Source: a virus. Taken from it: a stretch of 21,088 nt of DNA. The DNA is taken from positions 1-21,088 of the IMG/VR virus record IMGVR_UViG_3300032561_001745. One strand, written 5' to 3'. The notes beneath the pieces are model-generated. The model was not told where the DNA came from, did not search any database, and was given only the letters and a program-made list of their open reading frames with translations. Each line of letters opens with the position of its first letter. Positions within the stretch are counted from its first letter, which is position 1. A program made the position numbers and the translations under genes. Shown here piece after piece: positions 335 to 12,884 of the stretch.

Positions 335-865
335 GTGACCGCAGGCAATTCGGCAAGCGATTCCATTGATACAACAACACCATCGCGCGATTATGCGCTG
401 CGCCTGGTCGGTGAACGATATTGCCAGCCGGGCGTCATGCAGTGCCGCATCGGTGAACGGGTCGCGATTCTGCACCAGCTCGAAAATCCGGCCGACGCGC
501 GGACATTGCTGGTCCGCAACGCAAACGGTCACAACATCGGGTTCATCGGGCGCAACAGTTGGCTGCACCGCGCGGTGATCGACGAAGGCCGGGGCGCGCG
601 CGCCGTGATCAAGGATCTGTACACGGGTCAGGCTGGGTATCGGCGCGTCGTCATTGCGGTCGAGTTGGTGCCAGGCCCGATCGAGACATGCACCTACATT
701 CGGCCCTTGATTGGACTGCCGGACAAAAAGCCGGTGACCGTGATCGCCACCCGCAATCGGCGCCGCCAGCCGCCGGTCGAACTTGGCAAAACCGCCCAGG
801 TCTTGTGGAGTATTGCGCTGGGTGTCGTGTTTGTCGTCGCGGCGGTTTTGGCCATCCTCAAATAG
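335..865 (+). CDS. HIRAN-domain protein with C-terminal membrane anchor
   Basis: The protein is 176 residues with a GTG start 8 bases after the XRE gene. Residues about 22-112 fit a HIRAN domain: LVGERYCQPG, then GERVAILHQLENPADARTLLV, then NGHNIGFIGR. HIRAN domains bind DNA ends or damaged DNA and are usually fused to helicases or nucleases; here the domain stands alone. Residues about 155-175 (LWSIALGVVFVVAAVLAIL) form one hydrophobic helix, preceded by a basic stretch (RNRRRQ). This suggests a tail-anchored protein with its DNA-binding domain in the cytoplasm. The combination is uncommon. A role in tethering phage DNA or in host interference is only speculation. Confidence 0.72.
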   Translation: MTAGNSASDSIDTTTPSRDYALRLVGERYCQPGVMQCRIGERVAILHQLENPADARTLLVRNANGHNIGFIGRNSWLHRAVIDEGRGARAVIKDLYTGQAGYRRVVIAVELVPGPIETCTYIRPLIGLPDKKPVTVIATRNRRRQPPVELGKTAQVLWSIALGVVFVVAAVLAILK

Positions 866-2122: not shown

Positions 2123-2692
2123 ATGGCAACTGCGCCCCTTGACGACGAATTTACGCCGACCGCGCTCGGACATCTGGCCGTCTCGCATTCCGAAGATGTT
2201 GCCGCCGGCATCGATTTTGTGATGGCTTGGCTCAACGATCACCCCGATTGCCGCGATGCCTGGCGCGAACAGATCGAGCGCGCCTTTGCCCGCGACATCG
2301 TGTCCGCCGCCATGACCAGCAAGCGCGGGCGCATTGACCGGCAAGAGGCGAAGGCCGGCGCGGTTATCGGAACGATTGAACCCAAGGCGACCAAGCGCGC
2401 GGCGCCGGCGCCCGTGGTCAGCATGGGCGATGTCATTCGCCTCAATAGCGAGCGTTATCTCGATACGCCGATCTGGGGCGGCAAGCGGTTGCGCGATGCG
2501 ACCATCGCCGAGGTGCGCGATTGCGCCCGAAACTACCACATCACCGGCACCACCATGATCACCAACAGCCGCCGTTATGCCGCGATCGCTGCCGCTGCCG
2601 CGCGCACCGGCGCGGACGACACTGCAACGATCGGCAGCACGCTGGACGAACAGACCGTTCGCCACATCTGGGAGAAGACCGATGGACAGTAA
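2123..2692 (+). CDS. Phage hypothetical protein
   Basis: The product has 189 residues and its ATG is preceded by AAGGA 9 bases upstream. The N-terminal part (residues 1-60) is acidic and helical (DVAAGIDFVMAWLNDHPDCRDAWREQIERAFARDIV). A basic, Ala/Pro-rich linker follows near residues 65-98. The C-terminal half (VIRLNSERYLDTPIWGGKRLRDATIAEVRDCARNY, then an Ala-rich helix) looks like a compact helical domain. No catalytic motif is apparent. It is probably a DNA-metabolism or regulatory protein by operon context only. The hairpin array starts 8 bases after its stop. Confidence 0.7.
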   Translation: MATAPLDDEFTPTALGHLAVSHSEDVAAGIDFVMAWLNDHPDCRDAWREQIERAFARDIVSAAMTSKRGRIDRQEAKAGAVIGTIEPKATKRAAPAPVVSMGDVIRLNSERYLDTPIWGGKRLRDATIAEVRDCARNYHITGTTMITNSRRYAAIAAAAARTGADDTATIGSTLDEQTVRHIWEKTDGQ

Positions 2693-2700
2693 TTTTGAAA

Positions 2701-3209
2701 TTGGGGCGGCTTGTGAGGCATTGACACCCATTGCCTGGGTGCTGCCCCAAACCGACTTTGAGCGGGCCCTGAATGTGATGACATCCTTCGAACTCGTGCC
2801 CGCTCAAATTCCTTTGGCTGACCAGAAGTCCTGTGACATCCCTCTGCGCGTTGTCAGCCAAAACCCTTTCGGCAGCGATGCCGACGCGCGCGGCCTGGAG
2901 TTGCTTGTTACCCGGGTTTCTGATGCCGCGCGCGACAATTTGGGAGGCCAGCCGTCATGTGTTGCCCATATTCCGACTGCCTCCCAATTCGATTTCGGTG
3001 GCCTAGCAACCGATGATACCCTTGCGGGTTCTGCCACCGAACCCCATTGCGACGCGCCCGAAATGTCGTGTTTACCTTTTGTCAGGTGCGCGTCGCAAAC
3101 CCCTTCCACCGCGCCTTTGTACTTGAGTGACCCAATCAATCAGTGTGCGGACGGAAGCACCCCGACTGGCCTGCCCCGTGCTGAAATCCATGATGGAAGT
3201 GCTAATCGG
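2701..3209 (+). repeat. Array of nine 30-base-loop stem-loops with unit-specific stems
   Basis: Nine hairpins follow one another, each with exactly 30 bases between the arms. Left arm / loop / right arm: A 2701-2710/2711-2740/2741-2750; B 2757-2767/2768-2797/2798-2808; C 2813-2822/2823-2852/2853-2862; D 2885-2894/2895-2924/2925-2934; E 2940-2948/2949-2978/2979-2987; F 2994-3002/3003-3032/3033-3041; G 3047-3057/3058-3087/3088-3098; H 3104-3114/3115-3144/3145-3156; I 3162-3170/3171-3200/3201-3209. B-G have perfect arms of 9-11 bp, for example TTTGAGCGGGC/GCCCGCTCAAA. A has one G:U. H has a bulge and one G:U; I has one mismatch and one G:U. Stem sequences differ between units, but most begin TT and end AA. 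Loops begin C (T in A), end T, carry CC at positions 18-19, and carry TG at 12-13 in all but H (core TGWYAYCC). Spacers are 4-6 bases except 22 between C and D. Structured RNA, ssDNA hairpins or protein-binding sites are all possible. Confidence 0.9.
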
Positions 3210-3227
3210 CGCGGCGGCCGGCGCAAG

Positions 3228-3956
3228 GTGGCGGCGCGTCCGCCAGCCGAGCCGGCCGCCGTCGTGGCCGAGATCGTCATGCATTACCGCCGCTATGAAG
3301 ACTTGCGGCGCGCCTATCAGCGGATCGAACTGCAAGCCATCGCCACGTGCCGGGCGATCTGTGGGGGAGACAAGACCGCCGGGATGAAGCTCTACAAGGC
3401 GGCGGACAACGCCGACGCAGAGCTGTGGCTTACGCCCTATCGCATGGCCATGGCGCCGTTGACCGACGCGATCAAGGCGCAGGAAAAGATGCTGGCCGCG
3501 CTGGCCCGCGAATTGCCCGTGTACGAATGGGCCCAGGCTGTGGCCGGCCTTTCTGATCGGTTTCTTGCCATGATCGTCGGGGCCGCCGGGCGGCCGATCA
3601 CGGATTATCGCAACCCGTCATGCTTGTGGAAACGCATGGGCATGGCCGTGATCGACGGCGAGCGCCAGCGGCGCGTGACCGGCGATGCCGCGCTCGTCCA
3701 CGGTTACAATGCCGGGCGCCGGGCGCTGATGTGGAACATCGAGGAATCGATCCTGAAACAACAGTTGCGCAAGGACGAAGAGGCCACGCGCATCGCCAAC
3801 GGTTATTACGGCCAGGTCTACATCGACCGCCGCGCGCACGAGGTTGCGAACAAGGGCGAAAAGTACAGCCACCACCGGGCCAAACGCTACGTTGGCAAAC
3901 GCCTGCTGCGCGAACTCTGGCGCGCATGGCGCGATGGGAAGGGCGGTGCGGCATGA
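3228..3956 (+). CDS. Transposase_20 (IS110-type C-terminal domain) protein lacking the DEDD nuclease half
   Basis: From the GTG at 3228 the product is 242 residues; ATG 3279 is also possible. The frame stays open back to an ATG at 2682 with a good GGAG, which would give 424 residues, but that extension runs straight through the hairpin array and looks non-proteinaceous. The N-terminal half is helical. The C-terminal half matches the helix-hairpin-helix-type IS110/IS116/IS902 domain: VAGLSDRFLAMIVGAAG, then a segment beginning NPSCLWKRMGMAV, NAGRRALMWNIEE, and HHRAKRYVGKRLLRELWRAWR. The RuvC-like DEDD domain that precedes this in IS110 transposases is absent. The serine usually found after the 'GL.P' motif is replaced (MGMAVIDGERQRRV). 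It is therefore probably a domesticated or accessory nucleic-acid-binding protein, not a self-sufficient transposase. Family call is good; role unknown. Confidence 0.72.
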   Translation: MAARPPAEPAAVVAEIVMHYRRYEDLRRAYQRIELQAIATCRAICGGDKTAGMKLYKAADNADAELWLTPYRMAMAPLTDAIKAQEKMLAALARELPVYEWAQAVAGLSDRFLAMIVGAAGRPITDYRNPSCLWKRMGMAVIDGERQRRVTGDAALVHGYNAGRRALMWNIEESILKQQLRKDEEATRIANGYYGQVYIDRRAHEVANKGEKYSHHRAKRYVGKRLLRELWRAWRDGKGGAA

Positions 3957-5475: not shown

Positions 5476-6164
5476 TCAACAGCGACCGCCCCGGCCACAT
5501 CGACCAGGACACCGACCCGGCCCCGATCGCCGCGGGCGGCGTGGAGGTGATGTTCAAGGTGAAGCCATGCAAAAATGGCCATCTGCCTGGTCTTCGTGTC
5601 GGGCTGTCCGGTGGACACTATGCTTTTGTCTGTTCTTGCGATCAGGACACGCCGCGGTCCGCAACCATTGGTGACGCGGTGAAGGCATGGAACACCCGCG
5701 TCGCTGAGCAGGGCGCCTCGCCGAATGACAGGTACGTGATCACGAAGGGTGGCTACTATTACCGCCCAAACGCTCAAGGCTACACGACCGATGTCGAGCA
5801 GGCCGGTCGCTTTACGCTGCACGAGGCGATCCAATATTCGCATCCGAACGGACCCGATGGGCCGCGCGACGGGATTGATTACACGCCCGCGCCGCCCGCC
5901 ACTTTTGATGTGGCCCGCGAAAATGCGCGGTTGCGCGTAGAGGTTGAAGCCAAAAGTCAATGGATCGAACGCCTTGACCGCGAGGTAGCTGCCAAAGACG
6001 CCGAACTCGCCACGCTGCGGGTCGCATTGATCGCGGCAAAAACGTGGCATGAAGACGAACTCAAAGCGATTTCAAAGGGGCACGATTACGGATGGGCCAG
6101 GCACAAGCACCTGGAGCAGATTGAGACGATCGACGCCGCCTTGGGTGCGGGAGATGGCGCATGA
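5472..6164 (+). CDS. Lar-like anti-restriction domain protein with coiled-coil tail
   Basis: The product has 230 residues with an ATGA-overlap start. Residues about 27-80 resemble the Lar/restriction-alleviation zinc-finger family: 'KPCKNGHLPGLRVGL', then 'FVCSCDQDT' and 'DAVKAWNTR'. The first CxxC of the family (PCPFCG) is reduced to a single Cys followed by His (PCKNGH), so the metal site may be altered. Residues about 87-140 form a second small unit common in phage proteins (RYVITKGGYYYRPNAQGYTT, ending in PDGPRDGIDY). Residues about 145-215 are heptad-like and probably coiled coil. Two methyltransferase genes follow, consistent with a local anti-restriction cluster. Confidence 0.6.
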   Translation: MINSDRPGHIDQDTDPAPIAAGGVEVMFKVKPCKNGHLPGLRVGLSGGHYAFVCSCDQDTPRSATIGDAVKAWNTRVAEQGASPNDRYVITKGGYYYRPNAQGYTTDVEQAGRFTLHEAIQYSHPNGPDGPRDGIDYTPAPPATFDVARENARLRVEVEAKSQWIERLDREVAAKDAELATLRVALIAAKTWHEDELKAISKGHDYGWARHKHLEQIETIDAALGAGDGA

Positions 6165-7825
6165 GCCGCATTTTGATCGCCTGCGAATTCAGCGGCACCG
6201 TGCGCCGCGCCTTCACCGACCGGGGCTATGATGCATGGTCATGCGACCTGTTGCCCGCCGAGGACCGCAGCAACCGGCATATTACCGGCGACGTGCGCGA
6301 CATCCTGGCCGATGGCTGGGACCTGCTGATCGTTGCCCACCCGCCATGCTTTGCCGGCGACACGCTGGTGCTTTGCGAAACCGGCTACAAACCGATCGCA
6401 GAGGTTCAGCCTGGCGAAAAGGTGCTGACCCATCTTGGCCGTTGGCGCAGGGTGACCGAGGTCATGAAGCGGGTGGCGCAAAATGTCGTGGTCGTGAAAT
6501 CGACCAACAGCTTGCGCACCGTGACCACGCCGGAGCATCCCTATTATGCCCGGTACCGCGAGCCCTATCGCAACAAATTCCGCACCAAAGGAGAACGCGA
6601 CGGCGCGCCGGAATGGGTGCCCGCAAGCCAACTGACCACGCGGCATTTCACCGCATCGGTGCTTTGCCCCGAGCGGCGCGCCGACGTGTCCGACGACGAT
6701 CTGTGGCTGATGGGTCGCTATGTCGCTGATGGCCACATGCGAGATAGCCGGTGGACCCCGGGCAAGTATGAGGAAATGCTGATCGCGGTCGGCAAGCACG
6801 AGACCGAATCGTTCCTTGCCCGCGTGACCCGCAAGGTGGCGATGCATTGGAACGGCACGGCCTACAAGGCGACGTTCTATGGCCACGATGCCATCGCGCC
6901 TTTTGCCCAATTCGGTCGCAGCTGTGAGACCAAGCATTTGCCCGAATGGGTGCTGGCGCTGCCGGTCGAACAAGCGAGGCATTTTCTCGACGGCTACATC
7001 AGCGGCGATGGCCATATCCATCAGAAGCGCATCGAGGCAAGCACCGTCTCTCCGATGCTTGCGCTTGGCGTTGCCCACCTGATGCAACGCGTGCACGGCA
7101 AATGCCCGGCATTGCAAAACCTCAAGGCCCGGAAAAATCACTTCATCCAAGGGCGCGAGGTGACGAATGCCGAGCAGTTCAAGGCATCAGTGCCTCAATC
7201 GAACGAGCGTCTGCGCAACTATGTCGCAGGCATCTATGCTTGGGGCCATGTGCGCGAAATCGCCCACGCCAGCGAGCCGACTGTGGTTTTCAATCTGGCG
7301 GTCGAGGAAGACGAGACCTACACCGCAAACGGCGTGGTCGTTCACAATTGCACGCGCCTGTGCAACAGCGGCGTGCGCTGGCTGACAGAACCGCCAGCCG
7401 GCCGCAGCCGCGCCGACATGTGGGCCGAACTGGATCAGGGCGCCGCGCTGTTCTCGACGCTGTGGAATGCCCCTGTGTCGCGCGTGGCGGTCGAGAACCC
7501 GGTCATGCACAGGCACGCCAAGGAACGCATCATCGGTTACCAGCCGGCCACACAGAGCGTCCAGCCGTGGGAATACGGCGACTGGGAGACAAAGCGCACG
7601 TGCCTGTGGCTGCGCGGCCTGCCGCCGCTGGTGCCGACTTGGCGCACGCTTCATGAAGCGCGCACCGCGCTGGGCCACACCCGCGATCCCGTCGCTCGCG
7701 TCCACCGCATGGCGCCCGGCCAGGATCGCGCGAAAGAGCGCAGCCGGTTTTTCCCGGGCATCGCTCGCGCCATGGCAACCCAGTGGGGTCCGGTGGTCGA
7801 TCGCGAGGAGGCGAGCGCGGCATGA
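6161..7825 (+). CDS. DNA cytosine methyltransferase-like protein interrupted by an intein
   Basis: The 554-residue precursor has an ATGA-overlap start. Removing the intein (residues 63-396) gives a 220-residue host protein of the short phage 'DNA cytosine methyltransferase' type. The cofactor-side segment is ILIACEFSGTVRRAFTDRGY, and the motif IV equivalent is HPP|CTRLCNSG. A 'VENP' resembles motif VI. There is no target-recognition domain of normal 5mC methyltransferase length, so base methylation is plausible but unproven. The intein sits exactly before the Cys of the PPC motif, so the protein is inactive until spliced. Expected role: modifying phage DNA or another nucleotide reaction. Family call is moderate; presence of the intein is strong. 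Confidence 0.82.
   Translation: MSRILIACEFSGTVRRAFTDRGYDAWSCDLLPAEDRSNRHITGDVRDILADGWDLLIVAHPPCFAGDTLVLCETGYKPIAEVQPGEKVLTHLGRWRRVTEVMKRVAQNVVVVKSTNSLRTVTTPEHPYYARYREPYRNKFRTKGERDGAPEWVPASQLTTRHFTASVLCPERRADVSDDDLWLMGRYVADGHMRDSRWTPGKYEEMLIAVGKHETESFLARVTRKVAMHWNGTAYKATFYGHDAIAPFAQFGRSCETKHLPEWVLALPVEQARHFLDGYISGDGHIHQKRIEASTVSPMLALGVAHLMQRVHGKCPALQNLKARKNHFIQGREVTNAEQFKASVPQSNERLRNYVAGIYAWGHVREIAHASEPTVVFNLAVEEDETYTANGVVVHNCTRLCNSGVRWLTEPPAGRSRADMWAELDQGAALFSTLWNAPVSRVAVENPVMHRHAKERIIGYQPATQSVQPWEYGDWETKRTCLWLRGLPPLVPTWRTLHEARTALGHTRDPVARVHRMAPGQDRAKERSRFFPGIARAMATQWGPVVDREEASAA
6347..7348 (+). mobile_element. Intein with LAGLIDADG homing endonuclease
   Basis: The element encodes 334 residues inside the methyltransferase-like gene. 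It begins with Cys63 (block A: CFAGDTLVLCETGYKPIAEV). The TxxH block is at residues 123-126 (TPEHPYY). The end is block F/G: FNLAVEEDETYTANG then VVVHN, with Asn396 and Cys397 as the +1 nucleophile. Between them are two LAGLIDADG-type motifs, LWLMGRYVADG (181-191) and HFLDGYISGDG (274-284), each ending with an acidic residue and Gly as in active homing nucleases. All key splicing residues (Cys1, His of block B, His-Asn end, +1 Cys) are present, so splicing and homing should both be functional. Confidence 0.93.
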
Positions 7826-11948: not shown

Positions 11949-12011
11949 GTATGGTGACGGCATACTTTTTTGTTGACGGGTTTGCCTTTGATGTGTATTG
12001 TGATGGCATAC
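11949..12011 (+). promoter_or_regulatory. higB promoter with two operators
   Basis: The -35 box TTGACG (11973-11978) and -10 box TATTGT (11996-12001) are 17 bases apart. Two 17-base operator copies flank and overlap them: GTATGGTGACGGCATAC (11949-11965) and GTATTGTGATGGCATAC (11995-12011). These have GTAT/CATAC-type half-sites and match at 15 of 17 positions. The second overlaps the -10 box and start point. A full AAGGAGG (12018-12024) precedes the higB ATG. This fits autorepression by the HigA antitoxin or the HigBA complex. Confidence 0.7.
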
Positions 12012-12029
12012 AACACGAAGGAGGCAAAT

Positions 12030-12329
12030 ATGGAAATCGTTTCTGTTCTCGACCGTCGCATCAAGCAGCTGGTCGAAAACCCGAATGTTACCAAGGTGAA
12101 GGGGCTTTCGCCCGCGGATGCCCGCAAGATCATCGAAATGATCGCGGTGATCCGGGTCATGACCCACCCGCTTCAGCTTCGCGCCATCCCTTCGTGGCGG
12201 GCGCATGAACTGTCGCCGGGGCGCCCGACGTTCTGGAGCCTGCGCGTCAATCCGAATTTCCGCTTGGTGTTCAAGGTCGATATCGAGGAACAGGAAGTCC
12301 ATTTCCTGAATTACGAAGACTACCACTGA
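12030..12329 (+). CDS. higB: HigB-family toxin (RelE-like mRNA endonuclease)
   Basis: The product has 99 residues. The ATG at 12030 is chosen for its complete AAGGAGG 5 bases upstream; an earlier in-frame ATG at 11970 lies within the promoter. The C-terminal half carries the HigB 'killer protein' signature: LRAIPSWRAHELSPGR, then FWSLRVNPNFRLVFKVDIEE and VHFLNYEDYH. These toxins cleave ribosome-bound mRNA and are neutralised by HigA. The toxin gene comes first, as is usual for higBA. Unusually, 129 bases with their own operators separate it from the antitoxin gene. The location next to attP makes it a phage accessory module. Confidence 0.9.
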   Translation: MEIVSVLDRRIKQLVENPNVTKVKGLSPADARKIIEMIAVIRVMTHPLQLRAIPSWRAHELSPGRPTFWSLRVNPNFRLVFKVDIEEQEVHFLNYEDYH

Positions 12330-12336
12330 TCGGGGC

Positions 12337-12354
12337 GGGCGGGGAAACCCGCCC
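12337..12354 (+). other. GNRA-capped hairpin after higB
   Basis: GGGCGGG-GAAA-CCCGCCC is a perfect 7-bp stem with a GAAA tetraloop starting 8 bases after the higB stop. No T run follows, so it is not a standard terminator. It could protect the higB mRNA 3' end or attenuate read-through into higA. Confidence 0.5.
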
Positions 12355-12383
12355 AAACCGCCGCCGCTTGGCGACGTTTATTT

Positions 12384-12432
12384 GTATGGTTGCGGCATAC
12401 TTTTTTCTTGTTTTTGTATGGGGACGTGATAC
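12384..12432 (+). promoter_or_regulatory. Second operator pair, upstream of higA
   Basis: GTATGGTTGCGGCATAC (12384-12400) differs at two positions from the first higB operator, and the similarity extends into the following TTTTTT run (25 of 28 bases alike over 12383-12410 versus 11948-11975). A weaker copy, GTATGGGGACGTGATAC, lies at 12416-12432. The antitoxin gene therefore seems to carry its own duplicated control region. I see no fully convincing -35/-10 pair here. AAAGGAG (12445-12451) is the higA ribosome binding site. Confidence 0.6.
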
Positions 12433-12458
12433 ACCTGCTAGGGTAAAGGAGTGTCCCG

Positions 12459-12884
12459 ATGTCAGAAAACCCCCATGCCGAACACAAGATCGTGGATGCG
12501 TACGAAATGCTTGTTGGCCCCATGCCTCCGGTCACCAAGCACCCCGGCGAATTCATCCGCGATGTGCTGCTGCCCGAATACGGGTTGAACGTCGCCAAGC
12601 TGGCGCGCTTGATCGGCGTGAATCGGCCGAACCTGCACAATGTGCTGAGCGGGCGGGTCGATGTCAGCCGCGACCTGGCCTATCGCCTGGGCGCGCTGAT
12701 GAACGACCATGTGGCCGATTTCCTGATCTCGTACCAGATCGCCTGGGACAAGACGCAGGACGCCGAGCGCCGGCAGGCGTACAAGGGCACGATCGAGCGG
12801 ATTACGCCGATCGATCCCGACGCGCGGAAAGCCCGGGCGCCGCGATCGGCGCCGGCCGGTGCGGTGGAAAGCGCAGAGGCATGA
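12459..12884 (+). CDS. higA: HigA-family antitoxin (XRE helix-turn-helix)
   Basis: The product has 141 residues with AAAGGAG 7 bases before the ATG. After a variable N-terminus, the HigA signature appears: a segment starting HPGEFIRDVLLPEYGLNVAK, then the helix-turn-helix LARLIGVNRPNLHNVLSGR and VDVSRDLAYRLG, then a C-terminal helix (SYQIAWDKTQDAERR). Typical HigA proteins are about 95-105 residues, so this one has an N-terminal addition of about 25 residues and a Pro/Ala-rich tail. It should neutralise HigB and repress the operators before both genes. Its stop overlaps the next start by 4 bases. Confidence 0.9.
   Translation: MSENPHAEHKIVDAYEMLVGPMPPVTKHPGEFIRDVLLPEYGLNVAKLARLIGVNRPNLHNVLSGRVDVSRDLAYRLGALMNDHVADFLISYQIAWDKTQDAERRQAYKGTIERITPIDPDARKARAPRSAPAGAVESAEA

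What the first reader, a model, noticed from the sequence alone, without database searches (positions are those of the whole stretch)
2701..3956. Hairpin array directly precedes a Transposase_20-only gene: possible RNA- or hairpin-guided system
IS110-family recombinases are known to use a structured bridge RNA encoded next to the gene. Here a gene holding only the IS110 C-terminal domain (no DEDD nuclease half, altered serine region) is preceded by a unique structured array within 20 bases. This could be a derived system in which the protein binds the array transcript or DNA hairpins. No insertion-sequence ends are visible around it.
Basis: partly seen in the sequence, partly recalled or inferred. 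Interest (0 to 1): 0.82.

Follow-up and report, generated by a model that had tools for sequence, protein, structure and literature searches.

The report
Phage RNA-guide array inside its effector gene
The hairpin array and the gene after it form a phage TIGR-Tas system, a recently described CRISPR-like RNA-guided family, and the guide array appears to lie inside the effector gene's own translated reading frame, which is not described in the papers I could read.

Summary
Window 2701-3209 holds eight (not seven) stem-loops on the gene's strand. Each has an exactly 30-nt loop: C, spacer A, UG, 4 nt, CC, spacer B, U(G). A covariance model built only from other phages finds the first seven as its seven best window hits; the eighth is weaker. 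The protein is a TasA-type (nuclease-less) Nop/IS110-C-terminal-domain protein: its model's best PDB matches are TIGR-TasR and TasH, then IS621, then box C/D Nop5. The array is the stem-loop type of TIGR array reported by Faure et al. 2025, so the system is a known kind. The IS110-derived RNA-guided guess was close; the right name is TIGR-Tas.

Two features go beyond the published text I could read. (1) In this clade the array lies inside the tasA reading frame: 9 in-frame stops across 27 upstream arrays, against 62 and 84 in the other two frames; a Shine-Dalgarno/ATG precedes the array and no Shine-Dalgarno-preceded start follows it. One RNA would be both message and guide precursor. (2) Between close relatives the spacers are replaced wholesale (62% different) while stems, boxes and gene differ by 6-9%. 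Natural targets were sought and not found.

The parts
2670..2684 (+). Shine-Dalgarno-like GGGAGAAG and ATG (2682-2684) that opens the tasA frame; overlaps the end of the upstream ORF (stop 2690-2692)
   Evidence: sequence; same layout in most relatives
2682..3956 (+). tasA open reading frame including the guide array (424 aa)
   Evidence: no in-frame stop in the array against 5 and 6 in the other frames
2701..2750 (+). tigRNA unit 1: spacer A GTGAGGCAT, spacer B TTGCCTGGG
2757..2808 (+). tigRNA unit 2: A TGAATGTGA, B TCGAACTCG
2813..2862 (+). tigRNA unit 3: A GAAGTCCTG, B TCTGCGCGT
2885..2934 (+). tigRNA unit 4: A GGAGTTGCT, B GGTTTCTGA
2940..2987 (+). tigRNA unit 5: A GCCGTCATG, B TATTCCGAC
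2994..3041 (+). tigRNA unit 6: A AGCAACCGA, B TGCGGGTTC
3047..3098 (+). tigRNA unit 7: A GAAATGTCG, B TTTGTCAGG
   Evidence: E 0.26
3246..3953 (+). TasA Nop / IS110 C-terminal-like domain, all-helical, no nuclease domain detected
   Evidence: AlphaFold2 pLDDT 91.5; best structural matches TasR and TasH; sequence profile hits

Best explanation
This is a phage-borne TIGR-TasA system with a stem-loop guide array. The RNA made from 2682-3956 is both the tasA message and the guide precursor. TasA, expected to act as a dimer, binds the box D (UG) and box C (CC) motifs that flank the two spacers of each stem-loop. Host RNase trims the linkers, giving stem-loop tigRNAs. The RNP then finds double-stranded DNA by pairing spacer A with one strand and spacer B with the adjacent stretch of the other (top strand 5'-A then reverse complement of B-3'), unwinding and bending it. 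With no nuclease domain, TasA most likely blocks transcription or replication of rival mobile elements instead of cutting them. Because the array is in the reading frame, one RNA molecule cannot serve as intact message and as released guides, so guide release and TasA synthesis should limit each other. Shown here: family, array anatomy, frame embedding, spacer replacement. Inferred from the solved relatives: RNP assembly and DNA pairing. Inferred with little evidence: purpose and targets.
For: Family: model's top PDB matches TasR 9mty (Foldseek E 2e-6; Z 17.4, 189 residues), TasH (Z 16.3), IS621 (Z 13.8), archaeal box C/D Nop5 3pla (Z 8.3); profile against PDB sequences: 9mty E 4e-15, TasH E 2e-6; NCBIfam TIGR_Tas_endo E 2e-15. 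Array: 225 distinct units in about 29 loci, CC(A)-9 nt-YG-4 nt-CC(A)-9 nt-YG, loop-length peak at 30 and the same boxes without any motif requirement; box D letter covaries between the two positions across loci, r = 0.85; stems paired in 94% of cells with 86 two-sided changes (units were preselected for pairing). Frame: in-frame stops 9 vs 62 and 84; 24.6 +/- 4.3 expected if only the spacers are randomised; 21 of 27 arrays fully open vs 11.6 expected; no Shine-Dalgarno-preceded start after the last unit in any of 23 loci, and no start codon at all in 11. Spacer replacement. Pairing rule and dimer: PMC12045711.
Against: No natural target was found: no match above decoy level in 1.45 Mb of TIGR-phage contigs, none for the window spacers in phage and plasmid records or, for three of them, in IMG/VR, and only one independent site, at chance level, in 394 genomes of the host family of the rhizobial arrays. 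No expression data for this locus. Unit 8 is weak. Two of 30 loci (L022, L046) have no upstream unit in frame, so translation through the array is not obligatory in the wider clade. Box C here is CC without the A that dominates in relatives. The NCBIfam score is below its cut-off.
Confidence: 0.85

Rival explanations
1. Same TIGR-TasA system, but the array is an untranslated leader and TasA starts inside, for example at GTG 3228 or ATG 3279; the open frame through the array is chance in GC-rich DNA.
For: No direct protein evidence; window has candidate in-frame starts after unit 8; GC-rich DNA has few stops.
Against: Other two frames of the same arrays carry 62 and 84 stops against 9; none of 23 loci has a Shine-Dalgarno-preceded start after the last unit and 11 have no start codon there; randomising the spacers alone nearly triples the stops.
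Confidence: 0.12
2. A degenerate IS110/IS1111 element: the C-terminal half of a recombinase with leftover bridge-RNA-like loops.
For: Shared fold with IS621 (Z 13.8); weak Transposase_20 hits in 11 of 27 relatives; two-guide loops resemble bridge-RNA loops.
Against: Many intact relatives in diverse phages with 2-14 guides each; no DEDD domain found; structure and sequence closer to TasR and TasH than to IS110; spacers are diverse, not leftovers.
Confidence: 0.03
3. The hairpins act as DNA (folded single strands or cruciforms, like integron attC or REP sites) bound by the protein.
For: Arms are long and perfect, and would fold as DNA too.
Against: All units lie on the coding strand, none on the other in most loci; box motifs and 9-nt spacers match tigRNAs shown to be RNA in relatives (PMC12045711); frame embedding is expected of a transcribed, translated region.
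Confidence: 0.03

Closest known systems
TIGR-Tas systems with stem-loop arrays and TasA (Faure et al. 2025, PMC12045711)
   Same: Solo Nop-domain protein; tandem palindromic stems; [quoted passage not shown] in phages
   Different: Here the array lies inside the tasA reading frame (not mentioned in the text available); spacer turnover between close relatives documented; box C is CC without A in the window
TIGR-TasR and TasH with dual-repeat arrays (PDB 9mty, 9w04 and others)
   Same: Nop domain fold, two-spacer guides
   Different: No RuvC or HNH nuclease; stem-loops instead of edge repeats. Microcystis phage Mvi-JY20 (L003), a distant relative, has a dual-repeat array after its gene
IS110/IS621 bridge-RNA recombinases
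   Same: C-terminal domain fold; guide loop with left and right guides
   Different: No DEDD domain; array of many guides; no recombination expected
Box C/D snoRNPs (Nop5, Prp31)
   Same: Nop fold and box C/D logic
   Different: No fibrillarin-binding domain, no K-turn; DNA rather than RNA targets expected

Membership tests
TIGR-Tas | Nop-domain protein related to TasR/TasH | tested here: met
   Foldseek and VIA top hits TasR and TasH; sequence profile 9mty E 4e-15; NCBIfam TIGR_Tas_endo E 2e-15 but 57 bits against cut-off 100
[quoted passage not shown]
TIGR-Tas (stem-loop type) | Variable but consistently palindromic stems in place of edge repeats | tested here: met
[quoted passage not shown]
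   box D letter at the two positions, r = 0.85 over 27 loci
TIGR-Tas | Array expressed and processed into guide RNAs bound by Tas | not testable with these tools
   needs RNA pull-down
TIGR-Tas | Spacers direct binding to both strands of a DNA target | not testable with these tools
   no natural target found; binding needs a bench test
IS110/IS1111 recombinase | N-terminal DEDD (RuvC-like) catalytic domain | tested here: not met
   no Pfam match on the whole 424-aa ORF; structure model covers only the C-terminal-type domain
IS110/IS1111 recombinase | A single two-loop bridge RNA beside the gene | tested here: not met
   array of eight dual-spacer units instead of one two-loop RNA
IS110/IS1111 recombinase | Element ends and insertion site | not tested
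   element ends were not searched for

The most novel reading that the evidence does not exclude
A dual-purpose RNA: the guide array is translated as the N-terminal part (in some relatives also the C-terminal part) of its own effector, so one transcript is either message or guides, and a dedicated, unknown process rewrites the 9-nt spacers in place while keeping stems, boxes, linkers and reading frame.
Probability: 0.6. Interest if true: 0.8.

Novelty: new variant of a known kind. Interest (0 to 1): 0.64.

Why it matters
How TIGR arrays gain their spacers, how guide and protein levels are balanced, and what TasA does are open questions; the first and last are stated as open in the founding paper. 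An array locked inside the effector's reading frame ties guide supply to translation, and the L027/L031 pair gives a direct natural experiment: 13 of 14 spacers replaced with the scaffold nearly unchanged. Both make the acquisition question testable.

Tried and rejected
Targets: spacer pairs (5'-A + 0-2 nt + revcomp B) against 0.86 and 1.45 Mb of TIGR-phage DNA with mispaired decoys, no excess; host genomes of four rhizobial and alphaproteobacterial loci; 394 genomes of the host family, one independent exact site where about two are expected; phage and plasmid records; three exact 18-mers in IMG/VR. One suggestive hit: the L040 unit at 5673 matches, with one mismatch, the conserved WKRMGL-coding site of the tasA gene of two other phages, while its own tasA has no match within 4 mismatches there; one case, about chance level, not claimed. 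Rfam: nothing relevant. First viral scan with the single protein found nothing. Neighbour genes are not conserved, so no partner gene could be named. PADLOC has no model for it. The one search count of 'downstream' arrays as an untranslated control is imperfect, because some downstream units also lie in frame.

Full report
What was checked. The window is the whole of a 21,088-base virus record. At 2701-3098 there are seven stem-loops, each with a loop of exactly 30 nt. Read in register the loops are C, spacer A, TG, four bases, CC, spacer B, T, followed by the G of the 3' arm; TG at loop positions 12-13 and CC at 18-19 are invariant. An eighth unit with a weaker stem lies at 3162-3209. The RNA fold of the seven-hairpin stretch is far better than shuffles (z -6.5).

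Relatives. The window protein alone found no relative in IMG/VR, but two phage records did match: Rhizobium phage RHph_X2_25 and Microcystis phage Mvi-JY20. RHph_X2_25 has the same 30-nt-loop hairpins on both sides of its gene; Mvi-JY20 has a dual-repeat array with a terminator after its gene, the classic TIGR layout. Alignments seeded with these gave 15 and then 34 viral loci and four in bacterial genomes. Units are found in about 30 loci, 225 distinct ones, nearly always on the gene's strand, with 0-0.4 per locus in shuffled sequence for the loci tested. With no motif requirement, stems near these genes peak at loop length 30 (259 against about 70 at 29 and 31) and show the same boxes. The relatives' consensus is CCA - 9 nt - (C/T)G - 4 nt - CCA - 9 nt - (C/T)G. 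Three loci have a 36-nt version with a small middle hairpin. Loci L054, L055 and L020 show no such units; L055 has its gene near a contig end and L020 is only distantly related.

Independent test of the array. A covariance model made from 31 units of other loci ranks the seven window units first to seventh in the window; unit 8 is eighth, at the top of the noise. In four whole bacterial genomes 32 of 34 hits at E <= 0.1 lie at the tas locus, so array and gene go together. Stem pairs covary (the units had been chosen for pairing, so this is a check and not a proof), and the letter of box D covaries between its two positions across loci (r 0.85), as Faure et al. reported for TIGR arrays.

The protein. 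The conserved domain is modelled with pLDDT 91.5. Best PDB matches are TIGR-TasR, TasH, then the IS110-family recombinases ISCro4 and IS621, then archaeal Nop5 and Prp31. The family profile hits TasR (E 4e-15) and TasH (E 2e-6) by sequence. NCBIfam's TIGR_Tas_endo matches at E 2e-15, below its cut-off, as fits a nuclease-less member. Pfam finds nothing, DEDD included. This is TasA in the terms of PMC12045711, whose section on stem-loop arrays describes the same anatomy: palindromic stems, two 8-12-nt spacers, box C and box D.

The array is in the gene. The frame of the window tasA is open from an ATG at 2682 with a Shine-Dalgarno GGGAGAAG, 19 bases before the first stem, through all eight units. 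Over 27 loci the upstream arrays hold 9 stops in the tasA frame against 62 and 84 in the other two. Replacing only the spacers with random spacers from the set gives 24.6 +/- 4.3, never below 12 in 1000 trials; 21 of 27 arrays are fully open against 11.6 expected. Units sit in different phases (58, 13, 55), so this is not a by-product of one fixed phase. Between the last upstream unit and the domain no locus of 23 has a Shine-Dalgarno-preceded start and 11 have no start codon at all; a start with an SD-like stretch lies before the first in-frame unit in 19 of 28 loci (loose pattern). In several relatives downstream units also lie in frame, as a C-terminal extension. A word search of PMC12045711 found no mention of this. 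Possible reasons, all inference: protection of a long structured leader from Rho, self-limiting balance between guide release and protein synthesis, or assembly on the same RNA.

Spacers are replaced, not mutated. L027 and L031, two versions of one phage locus from one metagenome, align without gaps: spacers differ at 78 of 126 positions (62%), the rest of the units at 6%, the remainder of the aligned stretch at 8.6%; 13 of 14 spacers are replaced. The two contigs share an exact 127-base end and flanks at 89-93%, so they may be strain variants or two copies; the inference holds either way. Three units of L023 and L052 that keep recognisable stems, and units of L002 and L024, show the same. Shared half-units (same A with different B, or the reverse) occur.

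Targets. Following the published rule the target is A followed by the reverse complement of B (the order is my derivation from the published cut positions and 8-nt 3' overhangs). No excess over mispaired decoys was found in TIGR-phage DNA, and no exact target in host genomes beyond chance, nor in phage, plasmid or IMG/VR searches. This argues against self-regulation and against conserved host genes in the sets searched, and leaves unsampled mobile elements as the likeliest targets.

Verdict. A true TIGR-TasA system of the stem-loop type: known kind, new variant. Membership confidence about 0.95; translated array about 0.85; anti-mobile-element role about 0.4.

Noticed in passing
window 6161-7825: DNA-methyltransferase-like gene interrupted by an intein-like insertion (Hint, LAGLIDADG_3, intein splicing hits).
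   Followed up: no
window 11970-12884: HigB-like toxin and HTH antitoxin pair beside the integrase.
   Followed up: partly
window 335-865: Protein with a weak HIRAN domain match.
   Followed up: no
window 2863-2884: Small extra hairpin (CGGCAGCGATGCCG) between units 3 and 4, in place of the usual 4-7-nt linker.
   Followed up: no
L040 5673-5720: Unit whose predicted target is the conserved WKRMGL-coding site of other phages' tasA genes (one mismatch in L023 and L044), while its own tasA differs there.
   Followed up: partly
L003 3500-3860: Unannotated dual-repeat TIGR array with terminator after the tas gene of Microcystis phage Mvi-JY20.
   Followed up: no
L029, L036, L039: Variant arrays with 36-nt loops and a middle mini-hairpin (CCTGAAAAGG-like), possibly intermediate between stem-loop and dual-repeat forms.
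   Followed up: partly
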